Assembly: GCA_038373865.1 (NCBI GenBank)
Contig: JAXGGA010005165.1
Coordinates: 16,664 to 80,663, forward strand
Origin: Uloborus plumipes
Lineage: Eukaryota > Arthropoda > Arachnida > Araneae > Uloboridae
Reading direction: 5' to 3'
DNA length: 64,000 bases
A model generated the notes under the pieces. It did not search any database, had not been told where the DNA came from, and was given only the letters and a program-made list of their open reading frames with translations. Made by a program: the position numbers and the translations under genes. Within the stretch, counting starts at the first letter, position 1. Every line of letters begins with the position of its first letter. Positions 17,570 through 55,604 of this stretch are shown here, piece after piece.

Positions 17570-17872
17570 ATATCATCTGCAATGATTGAATGGCAAACAT
17601 AATATAGAAGACTATTTGATTATATTAAATATTTGTTTGTGAATAGATGCAAGTAAGAAATTAGTTCTGTGAGAAAGTTGAGCGACCTTCTGTGCATCAG
17701 ATGAACAATTTTTGGGACTTTTTTGGAAGATATAACAATATAACTAAAGTGTATGAAAAGTGACAGGATTTGCAAACGAATTGGATGGTTAAATACCTTT
17801 TCACGTATGTATAAGGTCATTGATGTGAGCTGAGTGTTGTGAAATTAATTGCAATTCTCTACTGGTGAAAAA
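17570..17872 (+). other. 5'UTR part of ZNF-A terminal exon
   Basis: Begins right after the acceptor with ATATCATCTGC. The ZNF-B exon begins ATATCATCAGC after its own CAG. Several phrases are shared with the ZNF-B leader, such as ATAATATAGAAGA versus ATAATGTAGAAGA and a CTACTGGTGAAAAA-like phrase just before the ATG. In-frame TAA at 17846-17848 closes the frame upstream, so translation should start at 17873. Confidence 0.65.
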
Positions 17873-18463
17873 ATGTTTGCTTGCGATGTTTGTGACAAAG
17901 TATTTCCCAACAGAAAATACCTCAGTACTCACATGCATATCCACACCACAGAACGACCGTATTCTTGTCTCGTTTGCGAGAAGGCTTTTAAAGCTAAGAT
18001 AACACTCAAGCGCCACATCGTGATCCATTCGGGAGAAAAACCGTACACTTGCGAGTTTTGTTCAAAAGGGTTTTATCGGAAAGCAGATCGAAACACGCAT
18101 TCCAGAATCCACACTGGCGCGAGACCGTACTCGTGTACCGTCTGCACCGGTACATTCCCGACAAGCTTGAGACTCAAACTGCATCTCAGGAGCCACAGCG
18201 ACGAGAGGCCGTTTCAATGCGAAGTGTGTCAGAAAGCGTTCCGCATGCGTGCAGATCTCGAGAAACATTCGAGAACTCACACGGGGGAGAAACCGTATTC
18301 GTGTGACGTTTGCAACAAGATGTTTGCCAGCAGGGGATACATCAAAGAACACATGAGGCTTCATACGGGAGAAAAGCCATTTGTCTGTGGAGTATGCTCG
18401 AAAGCTTTTGTTCGAAAGCAGAGACTTACGGAACATACCGCTATACACCTGCGAAGAAAATAA
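17873..18463 (+). CDS. ZNF-A: seven-finger C2H2 zinc-finger protein
   Basis: A 196-residue protein made almost wholly of C2H2 zinc fingers, hence probably a nuclear sequence-specific DNA-binding regulator. Seven fingers run in perfect 28-residue register: Cys pairs begin at residues 4, 32, 60, 88, 116, 144 and 172, and His pairs end at 24, 52, 80, 108, 136, 164 and 192. All zinc ligands are intact. Linkers are TGEKP-like (HTGEKP, HSGEKP, HSDERP). The protein ends four residues after finger 7. No KRAB, ZAD, BTB or SET domain is visible in this exon. An upstream TTG at 17849 is in frame, but ATG at 17873 is the first ATG after a stop and matches the paralogue's M-F-x-C start. The stop codon lies inside an AATAAA (18459-18464). 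Fingers 3 and 4 share NTHSRxHTGAxPYSC with ZNF-B. The target DNA cannot be told. Confidence 0.92.
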   Translation: MFACDVCDKVFPNRKYLSTHMHIHTTERPYSCLVCEKAFKAKITLKRHIVIHSGEKPYTCEFCSKGFYRKADRNTHSRIHTGARPYSCTVCTGTFPTSLRLKLHLRSHSDERPFQCEVCQKAFRMRADLEKHSRTHTGEKPYSCDVCNKMFASRGYIKEHMRLHTGEKPFVCGVCSKAFVRKQRLTEHTAIHLRRK

Positions 18464-21600: not shown

Positions 21601-22120
21601 ATATCATCAGCTATATTAAATGGAAATGTACTTGAGAGATAATGTAGAAGATTGATTTATGTTAAATGACTTGCACATTTATTTTCATAGTCAAAATTGA
21701 AAAGTTTGTTCTATACCAAAATTTGAAAATATTTCATAAACAGCTTTCAAGGATTTTACGGTTTTCAAGGATACCAGTTTCTTTGAAAATTGACTGTGTA
21801 GGAGAAGTGAACATTTATAATATTAATTCTGCAGTGTCTTTTTTTGACTGAAACTGTACTGGTAAAAGAAAAATGTTGACTTTTGATGTTTGTTCTGATG
21901 AATTTTTGTCAAGATGCAAACTTAAGAAGCATTTTAAAATCAATAGCAGCGAAAAGTTTGTTCTATAGCAAGTTTGAAAATATTTCATAAGCAGCTTTAA
22001 AGGATTCTCCGGTTTCTAAGATACCAGTTTCTTCTATGTATTGACCAGGTTTAAGGAGTGAACATTTAAAAAATTAATTCTGTCGTTTCTTTTTTCTGAA
22101 ACTTTACTGGCAAAAGGAAA
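21601..22120 (+). other. ZNF-B 5'UTR with internal duplication
   Basis: About 250 bp is duplicated: 21698-21950 and 21950-22200 share GAAAAGTTTGTTCTATA, TTTGAAAATATTTCATAA and GATACCAGTTTCTT in the same order. The first copy ends in a dead first finger (see 21873-21968). The second copy supplies the present ATG and finger 1. The leader is therefore about 520 nt, against 303 nt in ZNF-A; the dead finger sits about 272 nt after the acceptor, near the ZNF-A start position. Confidence 0.75.
21873..21968 (+). pseudogene. degenerate first-finger copy (upstream ORF) of ZNF-B
   Basis: A 31-codon frame starting ATG with the same layout as ZNF-B finger 1 (residues CKLKKH are retained). The first zinc-binding Cys is replaced by Phe and the last His by Asn, and a TAG follows after EKFVL. 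It cannot fold as a classical finger. In a mature mRNA it would be an upstream ORF ahead of the real start at 22121. Whether it represses translation is not known. Confidence 0.75.
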
Positions 22121-23488
22121 ATGTTTACTTGCAATATTTGTTGCAAAGAATTTTTGTTAAAATGCAAACTTAAGAAACATTCAAAGATCCATAGTGGCGA
22201 AAAGCCATTTTCTTGCACGATTTGCTCAAAATCTTTTACTGAAAAGGGAACGCTCAAACATCACATGAGGCTCCATACGGGGGACAAGCCCTACTCTTGT
22301 GAATATTGTTCAAAAACGTTCAACAACAATTCAGATCGAAATACACATTCGAGAACGCATACCGGTGCTAAGCCATATTCTTGTACCATCTGCACCGGTG
22401 CGTTTTCGACTCTCAGAAGACTCAAGCAGCATTCTGTCAGGCACACCGGCGAGAAGCCATTTGCTTGCGAATTATGTGACAAAACGTTTCCACGACGCGG
22501 TGATGTCAATAAACATTTGAAGAGCCACACGGAGGAGAAGATATTGCATACATGCGAAATTTGTTCGAGGCAATTTGCTCAAATTAGATCTTTTAAAGAA
22601 CATATGAATACCCATACGGGAGACAAACCATTTATATGCAAAGTTTGTCCTGAAGCTTTTGCCCGAAAAAGACATCTCACTCAACACATGGCACTCCACA
22701 ATGGAAACAATCAGAGGAGAGTGCTGTATTCGTGCGAAATTTGTTCGAAAGAATTCACTCAGAGTGCGTATGTTACGGAACATATGAAGATACATACGGA
22801 AGGGAAGCCTTTTCTGTGTGAAGTTTGTCCGAAATCTTTTGCGCTGAAAAAGTATCTTGTTAAACATATGGCGCTCCACAAGCAGAACAACGCGGAAAAA
22901 TCATTTGTGTGCGAAGTTTGCTCGAAAGAGTTTATCCAAAGTTACTATCTTAAAAAGCATATGATTAGCCATACGGATGAGAAACCGTTTTCCTGCGATT
23001 TGTGCCTAAAAGCGTTTGCTCGACGTTCGGATGTTTATCGGCACATGGTGATCCACATGGATGTGAAGCCTTTTGAATGCGAAATCTGTTCGAAGCAATT
23101 TACTCAGAGTGGGTCTTTCAAAGGCCACATGAAGATGCATAATGGAGACAAACCGTACGGGTGCGATATTTGTTCGAAGTCTTTCGCTGTGAAAAAACAC
23201 CTCACTCAACATATGTCGGTCCACGAGCCGAAAAAGGTTCCCGAGAAACTGTATCCCTGTGAAGTTTGTTCGAAAGAGTTTACTCAAAGTCGATATCTCG
23301 CAGAACATATGTATCTTCATACAGAGGAAAAAACTTTTGCCTGTGAAGTTTGTCCGAAAGCTTTTTACCTGAGAAAGAGTCTGAATCGGCATATGAAAAG
23401 CCACAAGCAGTGTACAGGAGAAAAATCGAATTGGTGTGAAGTTTGCTCAGGAAAATGTTTCTTGAGTTTGCATTTGAACAAGACGTAG
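22121..23488 (+). CDS. ZNF-B: 15-finger C2H2 zinc-finger protein
   Basis: A 455-residue poly-C2H2 protein, probably a nuclear DNA-binding regulator. Fifteen intact fingers have Cys pairs starting at residues 4, 32, 60, 88, 116, 145, 173, 205, 233, 264, 292, 320, 348, 380 and 408. A sixteenth (from 439) keeps CEVC but its His pair is lost and a stop follows. Fingers 1-5 match ZNF-A 1-5. Fingers 6/7, 8/9, 10/11, 12/13 and 14/15 are five copies of one two-finger module; longer linkers follow fingers 7, 9, 13 and 15 instead of TGEKP. The first finger of each module reads F-x-Q-(S/I) at the helix start, while other helix positions vary. The start is ATG 22121, matching the paralogue's M-F-x-C. No extra effector domain is visible. 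Function beyond DNA binding is inferred. Confidence 0.92.
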   Translation: MFTCNICCKEFLLKCKLKKHSKIHSGEKPFSCTICSKSFTEKGTLKHHMRLHTGDKPYSCEYCSKTFNNNSDRNTHSRTHTGAKPYSCTICTGAFSTLRRLKQHSVRHTGEKPFACELCDKTFPRRGDVNKHLKSHTEEKILHTCEICSRQFAQIRSFKEHMNTHTGDKPFICKVCPEAFARKRHLTQHMALHNGNNQRRVLYSCEICSKEFTQSAYVTEHMKIHTEGKPFLCEVCPKSFALKKYLVKHMALHKQNNAEKSFVCEVCSKEFIQSYYLKKHMISHTDEKPFSCDLCLKAFARRSDVYRHMVIHMDVKPFECEICSKQFTQSGSFKGHMKMHNGDKPYGCDICSKSFAVKKHLTQHMSVHEPKKVPEKLYPCEVCSKEFTQSRYLAEHMYLHTEEKTFACEVCPKAFYLRKSLNRHMKSHKQCTGEKSNWCEVCSGKCFLSLHLNKT

Positions 23489-36852: not shown

Positions 36853-37462
36853 TTTATTAGTTTCACATGTGGGTTTGCTTGTTTGTATGTATGTAACTCT
36901 GAATAAAAGATAAAATTCAAATTATTTACAAATATAAAATAAATATATTTAAGACTACTATTAATACTAAAGAATAAACTATATTATTACATGTTGATGT
37001 ATTATAACTGTTTCAGTTGTTTGTGCATGTAGCTCTGAATAAAAGATAAATTCACGTGCTCTGCTAATATAAAAACAATATATTTAATACTATCATTAAT
37101 ACTAAAGGCTAAACTATATTACATGTTGATGTGTTATAAGTTCATGTAAATTTAGAGCGGATATTCAATAGTTTTGAAAATTAGAGGGAAATCAGTTAGA
37201 GTATCATGAAATTTAGTTTAAAAGCATATTTTTTAGTTTTTTTTAAACTATAATTTAAATTACATTAGTTTCACAAGTGGGTTTACTTGTTTGTATGTAT
37301 GTAACTCTGAATAAAAGATAAAATTCACGTTCTTTACAAATATGAAAGTAATATATTTAATGCTATTATTAATACTGAAGGCTAAACTATATTACACATG
37401 TTGATGTATTATAAGTGCATGTAAACTTAGGGGATATTCAATAATTTTGAAAGCGTATTTTT
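36853..37462 (+). repeat. three-copy tandem repeat (also inside 52496-55595)
   Basis: Three direct copies, at about 36853-37010, 37011-37180 and 37260-37462, share TGTATGTAACTCTGAATAAA, TTAATACTAAAG, AAACTATATTA and CATGTTGATGTATTATAA in order. A reverse-complement copy lies at about 54425-54690, within the Foldback-like element. Confidence 0.8.
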
Positions 37463-41103: not shown

Positions 41104-44100
41104 TAGTCTAGTAAACGAAGGTCAAAATTAGGGTGAAAAAAACAAAAAAACATGCAGTTTTGCAAATTGGCATACAGGTACAGGAAGGTCTCCTGATGAA
41201 CATACTAAAAGTCCCCAGTGGTGAGGGGGGAGCTCGCAGCGCCACCTGGTGTTTTATGGGTGTTTTTTCAGTTTTCGTCTTATATCTCAAAAACTATTTA
41301 CTTGCGAGAAAAAATGTCAGTTAGTGAATTAAAGATCATAAAGTTATCTTTAAAACGCTTTTTTAGTTTTTATTATAGCTATAATAGTTGCCGATATATT
41401 GAGCTTCAAAGTTGGTTAATTTTTGAAAAACCAACTATTTTTTCCATCTTTTCTATTTTTGGAGCCGCCTCAGTGATTAATTTGATATGATTCTTTTCTT
41501 TTTTCGACCTGAAGTAGTACAGGTCATTAAGGCGATTTGATTTCTTGAAACGGGGAGGCAGGTTAGGGAGAAAGGAGGCGAGGAATGAAGGAAGACCAAA
41601 ATATGTGCTAGTTCACTATTTTTCCCTCAACCATAGTTCAGCAAACGAAGGCCCTAAGTAAGGGTGAAAAAATAATAATATAGTTTTAAAAATTGGCACA
41701 CAGGTACAGGAAGGTCTCCTGATGAACATACTAAAAGTCCCCGGTGGTGAGGGGGAGCTCGCAGCGCCACCTGGTGTTTTATGGGTGATTTTTCAATTTT
41801 CGTCTTTTATCTCAAAAACTATTGACTTGCGAGAAAAAAAATCAATTAATAAATTAAAGAGCATAAGATTATCTTTAAAACGCTTTTTTTGTTTTTATTA
41901 GAGCTATAATAGTTGCCGAGATATTGAACTTCAAAGTTTGTCATTTTTTGAGAAAACGACTATTTTTCCCCTCTTTTCTATTTTTGGAGCCGTCACTGTG
42001 ATTAATTTGATATTATTCTTTTCTTTTTTCGACCTCAAGTAGTGCAGGTCATTAAGGTGATTTGATTTCTTGAAACGGGGAAGCAGGTTGGGGAGGAAGG
42101 AGGGGAGGAATGAAGGGAAGAAAAAACTATGTGCAAGTGTACTTTTCACTATTTTTCCCTCTACCATAGTTCAGCAAACGAAGGCCCAAAATAAGGGCGA
42201 AAAAATAATAATATAGTTTTAAAAATTGGCACACACGTGCAAAACGGGCTTTTGATGAACGTTCTAAAAGTCCTCGGTGGTAGGGGGTGAGCTCGCAGCG
42301 CCACCAGGGATTTTGGGTGCGTTTTTTTCAGTTTTCGTCTTATATCCCAAAAACTATGCATTCGCCAGCAAAATCATCAATTGGTAAATTAAAGAACATA
42401 AAAATACATTTAAAAAGAATAAAGAATGAACTAGTATTTTATAACTGAAATAGATGGAATAGACTTGACATTTAAGTTCTAAACTCGTGAGATTTTGAAA
42501 ACCTATCTTTTTCTTTTCTTCTTTCTTTATTTTTTGGGACTGCGAAAGGCATATCAATCACTTTTTTCTTAACTTTCGATAGTGCTGTGCTATTTAAGTC
42601 AACTAAGGTCCAAGAAGACCTTAAATCATGTTATAAATAAAACGTATACCCTTCTGCAAAAAGGATAAATAATAAAAATAATGATAAAAAAGTCCAAACA
42701 TTGAAAAAATAGAATAATGCAAATAAAATAATGAAAGTGAACAGATGTAGAATAAATATAAACTAACATGAAAATGACATTGTACTCAAGTTAAATGGAT
42801 ACTTTCGTCGTCTGACTGTTCATCTAATGCGATATCCAATTTTGAACCGTTAAGGCAAATACCCTGGCAGTTTAAGCAAGCAATGCTGCAGTTTATCCTT
42901 GATTTTCTGCAGCCGCATCTTGCACCACATCCTTTTGTGCATGAAGAAAAAATCACGGAGAGAATGGAGTCAGGAGCAGGAAGCCTTGAAGTTGTTATAG
43001 GTTTCCATGATGTACCTGCTTTTTTCCATCCCCAGGCATCGGGTGGAAGTAATCTCCCCAACCACTTTTGAATCTGGTGATAAACTCTAAATGAATGAAA
43101 TTTTGCGGCATCTTCAGTAGGTGGGAAGGAAGCAAGATCAGGTTTTATTTTTCTTGCTGCTCTCTGAAAAGATATAAATCTCTGTTTATTCAGAGAAGTT
43201 ATATTTACTGGAGCCCCATATAAGGCTAAGAAAAATTATTGGCCTGCCTCCGCTACCTGCTCTGGGTAGAAAGGGGATTTGAGAACACTTCCGGAACGTA
43301 GCTCAATGATTGATTTTTTTGTAACATCTTTATGAATTTGGCTTTGCCTTTGTTATATGCAGCTGATGTTGTGTCACAGCCGGAGAAAGCATGGAGGAAG
43401 AGAATTTGATCTTTGAACTTGCAAGTGTTTTGTAATTCTTGTGAATAAAAAATTTTGGTGTTCACTTTATCTTTGCCTGGTTTGAAGAAAAGAATATTAT
43501 TATTACTTGGAGTCAAAGCTATTAATAAAACATTTTGAGCCTTCGTTTGCTGAACTATGGTAGAGGGAAAAATAGTGAAAAGTACACTTGCACATAGTTT
43601 TTTCTTCCCTTCATTCCTCGCCTCCTTCCTCCCCAACCAGCTTCCCCGTTTCAAGAAATCAAATCACCTTAATGACCTGTACTACTTCAGGTCGAAAAAA
43701 GAAAAGAATAATATCAAATTAATCACTGAGGCGGCTCCAAAAATAGAAAAGAGGTGGAAAATAGTCGTTTTCTCAAAAAATGACAAACTTTGAAGTTCAA
43801 CATCTCGGCAACTATTATAGCTATAATAAAAACAAAAAAAGCGTTTTAAAGATAATTTTATGCTCTTTAATTTATTAATTGATTTTTTTTTCTCGCAAGT
43901 CAATAGTTTCTGAGATATAAGACGAAAATTGAAAAATCACCCATAAAACACCAGGTGGAGCTGCGAGCTCCCCCTCACCACCGGGGACTTTTAGTATGTT
44001 CATCAGGAGACCTTCGTGTACCTGTGTGCCAATTTTTAAAACTATATTATTATTTTTTCACCCTTACTTAGGGCATTCGTTTGCTGAACTATGGTTGAGG

Positions 44101-44735
44101 GAAAAATAGTGAACTAGCACATATTTTGGTCGTCCTTCATTCCTCGCCTCCTTCCTTCCCAACCTGCCTCCCCGTTTCAAGAAATCAAATCGCCTTAATG
44201 ACCTGTACTACTTCAGGTCGAAAAAAGAAAAGAATCATATCAAATTAATCACTGAGGCGGCTCCAAAAATAGAAAAGATGGAAAAAATAGTTGGTTTTTC
44301 AAAAATTAACCAACTTTGAAGCTCAATATCTCGGCAACTATTATAGCTATAATAAAAACTAAAAAAGCGTTTTAAAGATAATTTTATGCTCTTTCATTTA
44401 TTAATTGATTTTTTTTCTCGCAAGTCAATAGTTTTTGAGATAAAAGACAAAAATTGAAAAATCACCCATAAAGCACCAGGTGGCGCTGCGAGCTCCCCCC
44501 TCACCACTGGGGACTTTTAGTATTTTCATCAGGAGCCCTTACTGTACCTGCGTGGCCAATTTTTAAAACTGCATGTTTTAGTGTTTTTTCAAATCCTTTA
44601 TTGACTAGACTATACTCTTTAAGCTAGTTATTACAAAGTTGCTTGAAACTACTGAAATAGTGTTAGGTCAAAAATTTTCAAAATACAAGTATATTATTTG
44701 CTTAAAAAATAATAAAATAGTGACTAAAATAATAT
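41104..44735. mobile_element. palindromic long-inverted-repeat element of ~535-bp units
   Basis: The left side has two full direct units (41111-41640, 41641-42175) and a partial third (42176 to about 42420). The right side (about 43540-44090, 44091-44612) has two units in reverse complement. Each unit carries ACGAAGGyC, a GAGCTCGCAGCGCCACC phrase, TTTTTGGAGCCG and CCATAGTTCAGC. Outer tips TAGTCTAGTAAACGAAGG (41104) and complementary TAGTCTAGTCAATAAAGG (44612) match. A further outer match (TAGTCACTATTTTATTA) is at 41084 and about 44710-44735. The centre holds a transposon pseudogene on the minus strand. No TSD identified. Confidence 0.75.
42786..43540 (-). pseudogene. transposon-associated GCDTTS-family protein, C-terminal part
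   Basis: Reading minus from 43540: LTPSNNNILFFKPGKDKV, then FLHAFSGCDTTSAAYNKGKA. After a frameshift near 43260 and one in-frame stop near 43237 comes ALYGAPVNITSLNKQRFISF, then PPTEDAAKFHSFRVYHQIQ, then WGWKKAG and PAPDSILSVIFSS. It ends in a Cys-rich tail (CTKGCGARCGCRKSRINC, CLNCQG). I recall this order as the C-terminal half of a widespread uncharacterised invertebrate protein family found in repeat contexts. The N-terminal half is missing, replaced by the inverted-repeat unit at 43540. The Cys-rich tail probably binds zinc. One frameshift and one stop make it non-functional as is. Confidence 0.7.
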
Positions 44736-45837: not shown

Positions 45838-45891
45838 TAGATTTTGATGTTGATGCCGTCCCTTCAACTGCATTATTTGAATTCGGGCACA

Positions 45892-46355
45892 GGACATCTC
45901 CGCCGCAACGTAGGACATTTCCGCCGCAAAGTTTAGCTCTATCTTCCTCCCCATGAGACATCTCCGCCGCGTCTCTCCCCGCCATTTCTTTACGACAGGA
46001 CAAATCCGCCGATTGAGCTGGTTGAGTGCAATATTTGGCAAAGTTTAAATTGATTTTCACTGCATTGTGTGTGTGTGTGTGTGTGTGTGTGTTTTTTTTT
46101 TCTTTCTTTTTGACTTTTTTTGCGATTTCCCCCTAAGTAGTCTGGGAATAAATTCCGTTTTTTAGATTAGGTCTTTGTCGCCAAAAGAAGATGTGTCGCC
46201 AAGATTGAAAATTTTAAGCCAGTAACCCCTTTCTAATCCTTGGAATATGGTGCGGCGGATTTGTCCTGTGCAAGGCAGAGGGGAGATAAGAGTCGCGGCG
46301 GAGATGTCCCATGGCAGGAAAAAGGGCGATAAAATTTGAGGCGGAGATGTCTTGT
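45892..46355. repeat. inverted cluster of GGACATCTCCGCCGC motifs
   Basis: Forward copies begin at 45892, 45913, 45957 (GACATCTCCGCCGC) and 45998 (GGACAAATCCGCCGA). Reverse copies lie at 46253-46266 (CGGCGGATTTGTCC), 46295-46309 and 46339-46352. The inner pair matches over about 19 bp including CAGGACAAATCCGCCG, so the block folds back around a 240-bp loop that contains a (GT)n tract (46067-46091). Open frames across it are repeat read-through. Confidence 0.75.
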
Positions 46356-46587
46356 TCCTTTGAAATTCTGCTCCGGTTGCCCAGGCTTCTCTTTGAGCAA
46401 AATAAGCAACTTTTGCCGAGATATCTAGCAATATTTCCTGAAGGAAGTTCTTTAAGCAAATGCCGTGCTTTTACTTTTGGCTTTTTGATTTAATGTAATT
46501 ATTTTGCAATATAAGTTTATATATTTGTATATCCAAAGAATGACAAAGCAATATAATACTTATTTTAAATTAGTATATATAATTATA

Positions 46588-47910
46588 CGGGTGATTCTCC
46601 AAAATCCGAACAAAATGATGTCCCCGTAGGACAGCACAAAAATTATTTGACCTAGAAAGTTTTTTTATTTTTTTAATTGCTGGAAATACTTATTCTGATG
46701 TTATTCAATTCATATTAAAGCAACTTTTCATTTATTTTTTTCTACAAAAATTTTTGAATAGCCAAAAAGTCACCTTTTTGCATGTCCCACCCTGTTTCTA
46801 AAATGTAAATAAATTATTTTAAAATTTTACGTGAACATTGCACAAATTCCACTTGTAGTGTTGAATTAAGTATAGTTATGAGAGTAATATAGTGTTGTTT
46901 TAGCTTATGTAAATGATGATATAATCAGGTAGATCATTTTGAAGTTTGTCCCCAGATTGCATGTCCCTCTCCTGGCCTACAAATTGGTTCAATTATTAAA
47001 GGCAAAAAGAAGGAATTTTGAATCTGCAGTACTATAGCAATGTTTATTCTCATCACTTCTTTGGACTCATAGAGTATTTTGTCTATAGAATGTGTCTGAT
47101 GTTCGTATTATTATTCCTTAGTTCAAAATGAGGTATGTAACATTTTCGATGTCCCTCTCCTGGCCAACATTTCTGTTCTAAATAAAATAAAAATAATAAT
47201 TCTGCCTGCATTGTGTAATTGAATTAAGAGGAATAAAAGAGAAAAAATACCATTATTTAACTTCTACATAATTCCGGGTAGAAATATCAGCCTTTTTTGA
47301 TTAAAATGTCCTTCTCCTGGCGCAAAAAAAAATGTCCCTCTCCTGGCGAAAAAAAAAAAAAATCACTCTAGCATTACTTTTAAAGCACTGGTAAAACATC
47401 CGGTAGAATAGATGGATTTATTTTCCAAACATTAGTTAAAAATATTAAAAAGGAGTCTCATTTATTTAAAAAAGTATTCATTTAGAAAATTTTGAACTTT
47501 ATTTTATGATTGTAAATCTCTTTCTTCAGATAAATATTAAATTTGTCGGATGCTGCATCTCTTATAACAGTGTTTGTTTAAGGAGGTTGTAAATTAGTTT
47601 TGCTTGTCAACAATAAACATAGTTTTTTCATTCATGTTGAAGTTCTTTCTTTGTTATTGTTGTAAAATTTCTGACAATCCTTGATAAAATTCATTTGTTT
47701 GCTCGCTTAGTGCTTCTTGTCACTCTGTCGGTTTGAAAAAATTGACCCCCCTTTCTTGGGGTGTAGCATACTTAAAGTGAGTTCCCTCTATTTTTCTCTT
47801 AATAAGCTCCTAACAAGGAGTAAGTATGATTTTTTAAAGATTGTTTTAAGCATTTTTATTTTTATAAGAGTTTGTGAGTCGAAAATGCCAGGTTTTTGGA
47901 GAATCACCCA
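46588..47910. mobile_element. TA-flanked TIR element with internal motif repeats
   Basis: TA at 46586-46587 and 47911-47912 flank CGGGTGATTCTCCAAAA and (complement) TGGGTGATTCTCCAAAA. 1323 bp. ATGTCCCTCTCCTGGC recurs at 46961, 47149, 47306 (one change) and 47332. No transposase frame is recognised. The TA target suggests a Tc1/mariner-like or similar superfamily. Confidence 0.75.
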
Positions 47911-51631: not shown

Positions 51632-52486
51632 ACTAAGGACGAACCCAGCTTTCTGGTAGTGGCGTTGGGTCACTTCCGGGTGTTAGGAATATAAGTACTT
51701 TTTTAATATAACTCCCTCTAAAAGGAGTTTCGAACGTTGTTGTTTTATTTGAGAACTTTTTTTTTTTCTTTTAATTCCGAATTTTGTTTACCATTGCGAA
51801 CAAAGATTTCAACAATAGGCTGCCTATATTTCTTTACTAAATAACACACTTAAATTATTTCGAAAAATATTATACTTTATGCTTATAACTTTTTAAAATT
51901 GAATCATATTAGACGTTTTATCCCATTTTTGTACAATTAATCGAAATCATGTTTTTTATTCAAGACACTTCACATAATTTAATGTCATTAACTCATTGTC
52001 TCAATACTTAACGACTTTATAAACTTCATTTAATTTATCTTAGCGCAAAAACTCACTTTAATTTCTTTTAAAAATTTAAAACAAATTTAACGAGTTAATC
52101 TCGTTTACTCGAACTTAAACTTGTATAGATAAATTTTTACTGTTAACAATTTCGTCAAATCTAATCAGCGTTTTCAGCTTCTGCTGGAAAATGTTTTTAT
52201 AATAACGTTCCCCAGTTACTAATATGAAAAGTTTTTTAAAGAATTCCTGGTTACTAAAACTCTAAAAAGGTTTCTTTAATACAATTTATGTAATTCTCCT
52301 CAAAATTTGGTGAGTGTTTTTCCTTGTTTTGGAATAAAATCTATCTTAATTATAACTGACGTTCGAGATTTATGATCAGAAGTACGTCTAGCAAATGCTA
52401 GGGCCGTTTTCTAGAAAAAATAATAGAGCTCGTTTAATACGGACGGTCAAAATTAACAAAATTTGTTTCTATGTATTAGCCATTAT
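51632..52486. other. nothing recognised
   Basis: AT-rich, without coding or terminal-repeat evidence. Confidence 0.4.
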
Positions 52487-52505
52487 TCGTAACGGTATAC
52501 GCCCA

Positions 52506-53075
52506 AAATGTCGCGGCCGAAATGTCGCGGGCCAAAATGTCGCGGCCAAAATGTCGCCGAGCCAAAATGTCGCGGGCTAAAATGTCGCGGGCAAAAATGT
52601 CGCCGGTCCAAAATGTCGCCGAGCCAAAATGTCGCGGGCTAAAATGTCGCGGGCCAAAATGTCGCCGGTCCAAAATGTCGCCGAGCCAAAATGTCGCGGG
52701 CTAAAATGTCGCGGACAAAAATGTCGCCGGTCTAAAATGTCGCCGAGCCAAAATGTCGCGGGCTAAAATGTCGCGGGCCAAAATGTCGCCTGTCCAAAAT
52801 GTCGCCGAGCCAAAATGTCGCGGGCTAAAATGTCGCGGGCCAAAATGTCGCCGGTCCAAAATGTCGCCGAGCCAAAATGTCGCGGGCTAAAACGTCGCCG
52901 GTCAAAAATGTCGCCGGGCCAAAATGTCGCCGGTCAAAAATGTCGCCGATCAAAAATGTCGCCGGTCTAAAATGTTGCCGGTCAAAAATGTCGCCGGTCC
53001 AAAATGTCGCAGGTCAAAAATGTCGCGGGCAAAAATGTCGCCAGTTCAAATGTCGTCAGACAAAAATGTAGAAGG
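52506..53075 (+). repeat. left tandem array, 62-bp higher-order unit
   Basis: Units AAAATGTCGCCGAGCC, AAAATGTCGCGGGCT, AAAATGTCGCGGGCC and AAAATGTCGCCGGTCC form a 62-bp higher-order repeat. GAGCC starts at 52559, 52621, 52683, 52745, 52807 and 52869, an exact 62-bp step. The inner third (after 52890) is simpler and more diverged (CGCCGGTC-type units). Confidence 0.93.
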
Positions 53076-54424
53076 TCCGATATTGATACAGTTAGTATCA
53101 AAAATTAAAATATATGAAAAGGCTTTTTTACACCGAATTAGCAAAAAATTGCTAATTGCTGTTGATGAACGTGTGCGTTAACGATAGTATGGACTAAAAT
53201 TTTTGAAAATACCAAAAAAAAATTTACCCTTTCGGCTTGTAACTGTTTCGAGCGCTTTCCAAGAAACAAATAGTTTTCAAACAAGCGTACGTTATTTATT
53301 TACAATAGTTTATTTCACCGTAACTCGCTATCTACCAACTTAAAAACGAATAGATTAGCAGCCCAAGCCAAGTTTAATTGATATCGAAAGGAAAATTTGT
53401 GTGTTAAAAAAGAAGTTGAAGAACAGTGAAATGAATAAGACAGATATACAATGTTTGAAACTTGGTTTCTGTTAAAATTTCTTACATGATCGAAAGCAAG
53501 TCTATATTATTTAAATAATAGAGGTCTTTTTATTTTCTTCTTCATAAGATGTGTAAAAGAAAGTATTGGATCAGTGAAAAATTGTCAATTTGGAAGAATT
53601 TACACTTTCTGACGTGTGAGGAATTCAATTTTATCGTTTATTTTTTTTAAGGGAAAATGTGTAAGTGTGTATCTGCGTGACCCATTTTTTGGGGGCTACT
53701 CTACCACAAGTTTCACTTAGTGGGTGAATTAGAATGAAATTTGGTACATACATGTACCAACCAATATGTGATTCAGTGCTGATTGGTTTTTGCCGCCACT
53801 TCTTCCAAGCTTTTACATGCAAGAATGTAATGGAACGTTTTCAGCATAGCGTGATTAATGTCTGAAGAAGGTTCAGACGAAATAAAATAAAAATTTGCCC
53901 ATAGGAAGCCTTCAGAAGATACGCCACATCATCGAGGAAGCAGAGCAATTGAACTTTTTATTTTCCATTATTTGTGAGTGATGTATATCAAGAAGTAATG
54001 CAAGTATTCAGACAAAATTTTGTTTGTAGAATGGTCTTAAAGGGAGAGATGCTTATTCATTTCTGGCGTTAATCAGCTCAGACATGGTTCTGTACCTTCG
54101 TTACAATCAGTATTTAAATGTGGAGTTGAATATAATACCATTTTTTCTCTTGACATTTCACCTCCCCTTCCACCACTCAGTTGTTACAAAGAAAGCAATA
54201 ATTCCATGAACTAATTTGATTTCAAACGTCCCCAAACAACTCTTAAAGAAAATGTTCTATAAGAAAATTGCCAGCTACGCGGTGATTAAACGATATTCCG
54301 TTTTTGCAAAAAAAATGCCTTTACAGCAAATTTATTTGTTTAATTTCTTTGTGTGAAAAAAAAAGAAATAATCCTAAATATAGTTTAACAAAACTAAAAA
54401 ATACGCTTTTAGAGTAAATCAAAT

Positions 54425-54690
54425 TCAAAAGAAGATTTTGAAAACTGTTGAATATCCGCTAAGTTTACATGCACTTATAATATGCATTTTGTGGACGATC
54501 GATGCCCAACTCAGAACTGATGTCAAATGCACTTATTATACATCAACATGCAATATAGTTTAGCCTTTAGTAATAATAATGGTATTAGACATATTACTTT
54601 TATACGTTTGTAAAGAACGTGAATTTTATTTTTGACTCAGAGTTACATACATACAAACGAACAAACAAAAAAACCTACTTGTGAAACTAG
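54425..54690 (-). repeat. reverse copy of the 36.9-37.5 kb repeat
   Basis: The complement carries TATGTAACTCTGA, CATGTTGATGTATAATAA-like and AACTATATTGCATGTTGATG phrases in the same order as the tandem copies at 36853-37462. It sits in the interior of the Foldback-like element. Confidence 0.75.
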
Positions 54691-54996
54691 TAAAAGCGTA
54701 TTAAAAAAGGAAGAAATTTAGCGTCCCTGGGCCCTAAGTACAGCCCTGAAAAAACTATGGCATTATTTTGGTACTGAAATAATTTAAGCTTTTGAAGAAA
54801 TCAATTTAGTTACATTTTTGTTAATAACTTAAGCTAATTTTCTAAGCTGCTACGTTTAAAAAAAGTTACTAAACAGGTGTATTTATCATATCGTGACAAG
54901 CTTATTAGTAAAATTGAGCTACATAATTAAGCTGCATTGAATTTATGAATTACTGGAAACATTCAATCTGTACTATACACTTACGTCATTTTGGAA

Positions 54997-55585
54997 CGGA
55001 TATATTTTGGACCGGCGACATTTTTGACCGGTGACATTCTGGACCGGCGACATTTTTGACCGGCGACAGTTTGGACCGGCGACATTTTAGACCGGCGACA
55101 TTTTAGACCGGCCACATTTTTGATCGGCGACATTTTGGCCCGACGACATTTTCGACCGGCGACATTTTCGACCGGCGACATTTTTGACCGGCGACATTTT
55201 GGCCCGCGGCATTTTGGGCAGGCGACATTTTGGACCGGCGACATTTTGGCCCGCGACATTTTAGCCCGCGACATTTTGGCTCGGCGACATTTTGGACCGG
55301 CGACATTTTGGCCCGCGACATTTTAGCCCGCGACATTTTGGCTCGGCGACATTTTGGACCGGCGACATTTTGGCCCGCGATATTTTAGCCCGCGACATTT
55401 TGGCTCGGCGACATTTTGGACCGGCGACATTTTGGCCCGCGACATTTTAGCCCGCGACATTTTGGCTCGGCGACATTTTGGACCGGCGACATTTTTGCCC
55501 GCGACATTTTAGCCCGCGACATTTTGGCTCGGCGACATTTTGGCCGCGACATTTTGGCCCGCGACATTTCGGCCGCGACATTTTG
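54997..55585 (-). repeat. right tandem array (inverted partner)
   Basis: Reverse-complement counterpart of 52506-53075, with the same unit types and order from the outer end inwards. The higher-order organisation is most regular between about 55210 and 55560. Confidence 0.92.
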
Positions 55586-55604
55586 ACCCCAAACCATTCG
55601 TAAC

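What the first reader, a model, noticed from the sequence alone, without database searches (positions are those of the whole stretch)
52487..55604. Foldback-like element with CpG-rich tandem-array arms and a perfect 9-bp target duplication
Seen: ATTCGTAAC directly repeated at both outer boundaries; two about 0.57-kb arrays of the same 15-16-bp unit in opposite orientation; both tips start GGT; the outermost 120 bp are nearly identical between arms. Known: Drosophila FB elements have long inverted repeats of short tandem units and 9-bp TSDs and are linked to Mutator-like transposases. Inferred: a non-autonomous member of this group with a CpG-rich unit in an AT-rich genome, possibly an undescribed family.
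Basis: partly seen in the sequence, partly recalled or inferred. Interest (0 to 1): 0.78.

Follow-up and report, generated by a model that had tools for sequence, protein, structure and literature searches.

The report
A thousand-copy foldback jumping gene
This is one copy of a common jumping gene that carries no transposase of its own and whose two ends are mirror-image blocks of a short GC-rich repeat; it makes a clean 9-letter duplication where it lands, so it is a real family of a known kind.

Summary
The element is 52494-55595 (3,102 bp) with a perfect 9-bp duplication, ATTCGTAAC, at 52485-52493 and 55596-55604. Its arms are inverted arrays of a 15-16-bp unit, 94% alike over 568 bp and identical for 203 bp. 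The outermost 11 bp are not inverted: one end is GGTATACGCCC (A1), the other GGTTTGGGGTC (A2).

The window's own 1.42-Gb genome holds 1,000 A1 and 976 A2 tips at up to 2 mismatches. Of 26 copies tested, 21 have perfect 9-bp duplications and one a perfect 8-bp one. Of 50 interiors examined, 49 carry the same spacer in one polarity. A nested copy gives a filled/empty-site comparison. So this is a mobile, non-autonomous foldback family with a recent burst.

No transposase was found in any copy examined, so assignment to Mutator-like elements (Phantom/Muta type) is inferred from the 9-bp duplication, the unit-and-tip layout shared with Tm1 and Muta1, and a FLYWCH-MULE transposon in the same genome with a similar unit. 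Verdict: a new member of a known kind. The less ordinary point is that arms appear to exchange sequence in some lineages while the two tips stay different.

The parts
52485..52493 (+). left copy of the 9-bp target-site duplication, ATTCGTAAC
   Evidence: exact repeat of 55596-55604, only two occurrences in the window; same behaviour in 21 of 26 copies
52494..52504 (+). A1 tip GGTATACGCCC, outside the strict inverted repeat
   Evidence: 1,000 matches of tip plus first unit in the genome, <=2 mismatches, control 0; convergent A2 partner for 73 of 100 listed
52505..53068 (+). left arm: tandem array of the 15-16-bp unit, AAAATGTCGC plus a 4-6-bp linker, with 62-bp higher-order repeats
53069..54986 (+). 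AT-rich spacer shared by the family in one polarity; longest stop-to-stop frame inside it 69 aa
54987..55584 (-). right arm: the same array in inverted orientation
   Evidence: 94% identical to the left arm over 568 bp; TRF
55585..55595 (-). A2 tip, GGTTTGGGGTC read inward
   Evidence: 976 matches of tip plus first unit in the genome, <=2 mismatches, control 0
55596..55604 (+). right copy of the 9-bp target-site duplication, ATTCGTAAC

Best explanation
This is one copy of a high-copy, non-autonomous foldback DNA transposon family. Shown: defined ends, a 9-bp target duplication, about 1,000 tips of each kind, one shared spacer, and an empty site. Inferred: a MULE transposase of the FLYWCH/Phantom-Muta type, supplied in trans, binds the conserved core of each 15-16-bp unit, so each arm is a ladder of binding sites. 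It cuts at the 11-bp tips and joins the element to a 9-bp staggered target cut. Also inferred: the arms lengthen and shorten by exchange between units (hence the 62-bp repeat and varying arm lengths) and can copy sequence from arm to arm, while the A1 and A2 tips stay different because the transposase needs one of each.
For: Tips: 494+506 A1 and 505+471 A2 sites, reversed-pattern controls 0. Of 100 listed A1 tips, 73 have a convergent A2 within 20 kb by a nearest-partner rule (one of these, in C143, is a wrong partner); convergent A1/A1 pairs within 6 kb 0, divergent pairs 0; lengths cluster near 2.9 and 3.6 kb. Duplications: 21 of 26 perfect 9 bp, one perfect 8 bp; mispaired control 1 of 650, and that one reuses a flank listed twice. 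Same spacer in 30 of 30 A1 loci and, after a second look at four, in 19 of 20 further copies. Empty site: the joined flanks of a nested copy span the junction in 27 of 29 distinct copies, 15 without gaps and 12 identical round the junction. Mutator link: Tm1 has asymmetric 7-bp tips, 13-15-bp units, mostly 9-bp duplications and a Phantom-type transposase (PMC3169594); Muta1 has 8-9-bp duplications, 12-bp units with 3-4-bp spacers and transposes in yeast (PMC5225508). In this genome L039 encodes FLYWCH+MULE; its near-copy L038 has asymmetric tips and a 9-bp duplication; both carry units differing from this family's outer unit at one base in 14.
Against: No transposase lies in any inspected copy, three long ones of 5.6-6.0 kb included. 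None of 55 of the at least 129 MULE-domain places, nor 2 further places found with the L039 protein, has AAATGTCGC arrays in the partial flanks read. The L038/L039 units point the opposite way relative to the element ends, and L039 itself shows no target duplication. Four of the 26 duplication tests failed: one imperfect, one with no match, one 7 of 9, and one paired with the wrong tip by my rule. Of 100 listed A1 tips, 27 have no listed partner.
Confidence: 0.8

Rival explanations
1. The same mobile foldback family, but moved by a transposase of a different group that also makes 9-bp duplications, such as Rehavkus (PHD finger) or Merlin.
For: No transposase of its own has been found. Rehavkus is listed with 9-bp duplications, 26-400-bp terminal repeats and a minisatellite in arthropods and annelids (PMC6446971, passages). 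Merlin's 8-9 bp is recalled.
Against: Asymmetric tips plus 13-16-bp unit arrays are documented for Phantom/Muta-type elements, and L038/L039 plus a more distant MULE locus in this genome carry units of that size near their ends. I did not search for Rehavkus or Merlin transposases.
Confidence: 0.13
2. A foldback of the P-element kind (Galileo) or hAT kind.
For: Galileo has long internally repetitive inverted repeats with multiple transposase sites (titles and abstract starts).
Against: Duplications are 9 bp in 21 of 26 and 8 bp in 1; Galileo's 7 bp and hAT's 8 bp are recalled.
Confidence: 0.04
3. Two unrelated local satellites, or an inverted segmental duplication, with a chance 9-bp repeat.
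For: Tandem arrays alone are common, and a 9-bp match has a 0.1-0.6% chance with loose edges.
Against: About 1,000 tips of each kind, shared spacer, duplications and an empty site.
Confidence: 0.01

Closest known systems
Tm1 (Meloidogyne), Mutator/Foldback, Phantom-type transposase (PMC3169594)
   Same: Asymmetric non-inverted tips, generally one of each per element; arms of 13-15-bp tandem units; mostly 9-bp duplications; many transposase-less copies; no obvious coding potential in the first elements described.
   Different: Different tip and unit sequences; longer arrays here (about 570 bp in the window copy) with a 62-bp higher-order repeat; about 1,000 copies against 61 analysed there; no autonomous copy found here; the histone hairpin was not looked for.
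Muta1/Muta5 (Aedes aegypti), Muta1 called a type-2 Foldback MULE (PMC5225508)
   Same: 8-9-bp duplications; 8-10-bp terminal motif followed by tandem 12- or 15-bp units, in Muta1 12 bp plus 3-4-bp spacers giving a 15-16-bp period; hundreds of non-autonomous derivatives.
   Different: 145-151-bp arms with 9 units; autonomous copies known; transposition of Muta1 shown in yeast.
L038/L039 FLYWCH-MULE transposon of the same genome and its short relative at window 45885-46358
   Same: Asymmetric GG-type tips, 9-bp duplication in L038 (none in L039), sub-terminal units GACATTTCCGCCGC against GACATTTCGGCCGC here.
   Different: Three or four spaced units per end, pointing the other way; different spacer; L039 encodes an open 463-aa transposase.
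Drosophila FB and Tetris (PMC4079207); sea-urchin TU elements (recalled)
   Same: Long inverted repeats made of tandem units; 8-10-bp duplications in Tetris; 9 bp in FB (recalled).
   Different: Unit lengths and sequences differ (about 220 bp in Tetris); TU duplications are 8 bp (recalled).

Membership tests
Foldback-type DNA transposon (structural class) | long inverted repeats built of short tandem units | tested here: met
Foldback-type DNA transposon (structural class) | mobile: defined ends, target duplications, dispersed copies, empty site | tested here: met
Mutator-like element (MULE), Phantom/Muta clade | 8-11-bp, commonly 9-bp, target duplication | tested here: met
   21 of 26 at 9 bp, 1 at 8 bp
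Mutator-like element (MULE), Phantom/Muta clade | family contains or is mobilised by a MULE transposase, FLYWCH-bearing in many Phantom elements | tested here: inconclusive
   none inside inspected copies; none of 55 of at least 129 MULE places plus 2 others is flanked by these arrays in the partial flanks read; a FLYWCH-MULE element with a similar unit exists
Mutator-like element (MULE), Phantom/Muta clade | mobilisation of this element by that transposase | not testable with these tools
   needs an excision or transposition assay
Tm1-like sub-TIR architecture | one A1 and one A2 non-inverted tip per element | tested here: met
   73 of 100 listed A1 tips paired with A2; 0 convergent A1/A1 within 6 kb
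Galileo / P superfamily | 7-bp target duplication (recalled) | tested here: not met
   0 of 26 copies match over exactly the 7 bp next to the tips
Rehavkus | PHD-finger transposase | not tested
   no search for this protein was run

The most novel reading that the evidence does not exclude
A polarised foldback transposon. The two long arms rewrite each other by sequence transfer, but the 11-bp tips are excluded from, or purged after, that transfer because the transposase needs one A1 and one A2 end. In three of nine complete copies the A1 arm carries the repeat pattern that in the other six is seen only on the A2 side, while its tip is still different.
Probability: 0.4. Interest if true: 0.55.

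Novelty: new member of a known kind. Interest (0 to 1): 0.4.

Why it matters
It adds a large, recently active foldback family with clear ends to an unnamed eukaryotic genome, with about a thousand natural copies in which the number and order of transposase-site-like units vary. That makes two points testable: why foldback arms grow (more binding sites, or a by-product of exchange), and why some Mutator-type elements keep unequal tips when the inverted repeats behind them become alike. Foldback elements also seed satellites, as argued for Tetris (PMC4079207).

Tried and rejected
Local satellite or chance repeat: rejected by genome copies, duplications and the empty site. Autonomous copy among long members: C112 (6,036 bp), C449 (5,915), C790 (5,565) and C518 (5,341) are the same family with extra sequence inside and no transposase-like frame that I could see; C210 and C283 are truncated or interrupted family copies; C215 keeps three units and then leaves the family. 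Autonomous copy among MULE loci: none in the parts read. Arrays in viral contigs: 18 stretches with one or two matches each, so no array. Array-derived reading frames as a way into public proteins: one hit, a 136-aa protein on an 888-bp ENA contig; the opposite strand gave none. Papers printing the unit: 55 papers hold at least one of six short strings; 40 were listed and none of those titles is about a transposon. Other paper searches.

Arms within an element are not in general closer than between elements (mean identity of 8 copies 0.909 within, 0.907 A1-A2 between, 0.937 A1-A1, 0.951 A2-A2), so I do not claim general within-element homogenisation, only transfer in some W-type copies. Scripts were waits; script 73 timed out and was redone.

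Full report
What is in the window. The element spans 52494-55595. It is bounded by ATTCGTAAC on both sides, which occurs nowhere else in the window. The left arm is an array of AAAATGTCGC plus a 4-6-bp linker on the + strand (linkers counted); the right arm is the same array inverted. AAAATGTCGC occurs 32 times left and 30 times right. The two arms align over 568 bp at 94%, with an exact 203-bp run directly behind the tips. TRF also finds a 62-bp higher-order unit, made of four 15-16-bp units that differ in their linkers. The eight-base anchor AATGTCGC recurs at 14-16-bp spacing in the arms of five copies (269 intervals). The first 11 bp at each end are not inverted copies of each other. The spacer, 53069-54986, holds no stop-to-stop frame over 69 aa.

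It is a dispersed family. The window lies in a genome held here as 1.42 Gb in 25,906 contigs. A pair of units 6 bp apart occurs 9,497 + 9,166 times, with 0 in the reversed control. The A1 tip with its first unit occurs 1,000 times and the A2 tip 976 times at up to 2 mismatches, controls 0. I used the 100 listed A1 places and 96 of the 100 listed A2 places, leaving out four A2 places on contigs past the end of the A1 list; all listed places are exact matches, so partners with mismatches are not seen. Of the 100 A1 tips, 73 have an A2 in convergent orientation within 20 kb. There were no convergent A1/A1 pairs within 6 kb, no divergent pairs, one A2/A2 pair and three same-direction neighbours; the A2/A2 pair and two of the neighbours lie in the nested C143 cluster. 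Lengths cluster near 2.9 and 3.6 kb. At about 3.3 kb each, a thousand copies is roughly 0.2% of the genome (my arithmetic).

It moves. Both flanks were read for 26 copies, the window included. Twenty-one have perfect 9-bp duplications and C94 a perfect 8-bp one. Among 650 mispaired flank combinations one matched, because the same C143 flank is listed twice. At C143 one copy sits inside another at the edge of its arm. Removing it and one 9-bp repeat gives a 91-bp joined sequence. It spans the junction in 31 of 33 loci, or 27 of 29 distinct copies; 15 of these align without gaps and 12 are identical over the 20 bp round the junction. The gapped ones, mostly of the other subfamily, differ by a few bases (2 or 6) beside the junction. 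Four copies are identical over all 91 bp and the window's own copy differs at one base. The 21 perfect duplications show a symmetric bias: T at position 1 or A at position 9 in 2 of 42 against about a third expected (p = 2e-5, chosen after looking).

One spacer, two subfamilies. All 30 fetched A1 loci carry the window's spacer in the same polarity (plus strand only; both strands, 30 plus and 0 minus). One of the 30, L088, is seen through the copy nested in it. Of 20 further interiors, mostly long or unpaired copies, 16 matched at once, three of them only over part of the piece (L134, L146, L149). Three of the remaining four (C518, C210, C283) proved to be the family with insertions or truncation; one (C215) keeps three units and then leaves the family. 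There are two subfamilies: W, that of the window, and C2, whose spacer is about 0.6 kb longer. Pairwise difference is 0.95% within C2 (55 pairs), 2.95% within W (66 pairs) and 5.8% between, after six damaged or interrupted copies and the overlapping locus L088 were left out. I read that as a recent burst.

How it probably works. The nearest described elements I met are Tm1 (passages and first part of the Discussion read) and Muta1 (passages and Discussion read). Tm1 has asymmetric 7-bp tips, 13-15-bp units and 8-10-bp duplications in 45 of 53 complete elements, with a Phantom-type transposase. Muta1 has a 10-bp terminal motif and 12-bp units with 3-4-bp spacers, and jumps in yeast with 8- or 9-bp duplications. 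The period and layout here match closely. In the same genome the MULE domain has 129 matches, a lower bound. L039 encodes a 463-aa FLYWCH + MULE protein with relatives named from aphids, phylloxera, a scale insect and Diabrotica. The ends of L038/L039 carry GACATTTCCGCCGC units; L038 has a 9-bp duplication and L039 none. This family's outer unit read the other way is GACATTTCGGCCGC. The best ungapped match reached a score equalled in 1 of 300 shuffles and 0 of 574 control pieces, but the units face the opposite way relative to the ends, so this is a lead. Two other MULE loci, 25-27% identical to the L039 protein, have a different 15-bp unit near one end, tandem in L161 and about 30 bp apart in L166. 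I therefore infer a FLYWCH-MULE enzyme acting in trans.

What is missing. No copy with a transposase was found. I read partial flanks of 55 of the 129 MULE places (30, 19, 6) and of 2 more places found with the L039 protein. None has AAATGTCGC arrays there. Most tips in the genome remain unlisted, so an autonomous copy may exist.

Arms and tips. In nine complete copies every A2 arm carries the CGAGCC repeat variant. On the A1 side only W, C10 and C16 do. Among 29 A1 loci, 10 of 15 W-type arms carry it and 0 of 14 C2-type arms do. The simplest reading is that A2-type arm sequence was copied to the A1 side in some W-type lineages, stopping short of the tip. In all nine copies the two tips remain different, though they were chosen by those tips. 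Mean arm identity is not higher within elements than between them overall, so this is a claim about some lineages only. In Tm1, an element with A2 at both ends lacked a target duplication, which fits a need for one of each.

Membership and novelty. The foldback structure and 9-bp duplication were tested and met. The MULE membership rests on architecture and a relative in the same genome, and is inconclusive by the transposase test. I file it as a new member of a known kind, most likely a Phantom/Muta-type foldback MULE family. Repbase and Dfam could not be searched; the text searches showed no paper naming this unit among the titles seen.

Noticed in passing
window 45885-46358: A 474-bp miniature element whose ends match those of the L038/L039 FLYWCH-MULE transposon (86% and 78%), flanked by TTTGAATTC / TTTGAAATTC: a second, related Mutator-type family in the same window.
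   Followed up: partly
window 36856-37452: About three tandem copies of a roughly 135-bp module, 80-91% like parts of this element's spacer (54375-54667) but without the arrays: spacer material shared with another repeat.
   Followed up: no
window 17849-18463 and 22100-23488: Two open frames of tandem C2H2 zinc fingers.
   Followed up: no
window 41104-44589: Nested direct and inverted repeats, up to 95% over 1,058 bp, with two frames of 149 and 136 aa without Pfam match.
   Followed up: no
L161:187-235 and L166:421-497 (C7910, C12479): Beside two other MULE loci, a different 15-bp unit, GTCCGCTCTGGCCAC and close variants, so MULE families here may each have their own unit.
   Followed up: partly
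P0001 (ENA, 888-bp contig): A 136-aa predicted protein that looks like a read-through of a related 16-bp array, hinting at a relative in another sample.
   Followed up: no
G000:C143:25762-34140: Cluster of nested copies of this family, one inserted at the arm/spacer edge of another.
   Followed up: yes
window 47303-47358: Two 26-bp units AAAATGTCCCTCTCCTGGCG..., sharing AAAATGTC with this family's unit; may be a remnant of another such family.
   Followed up: no
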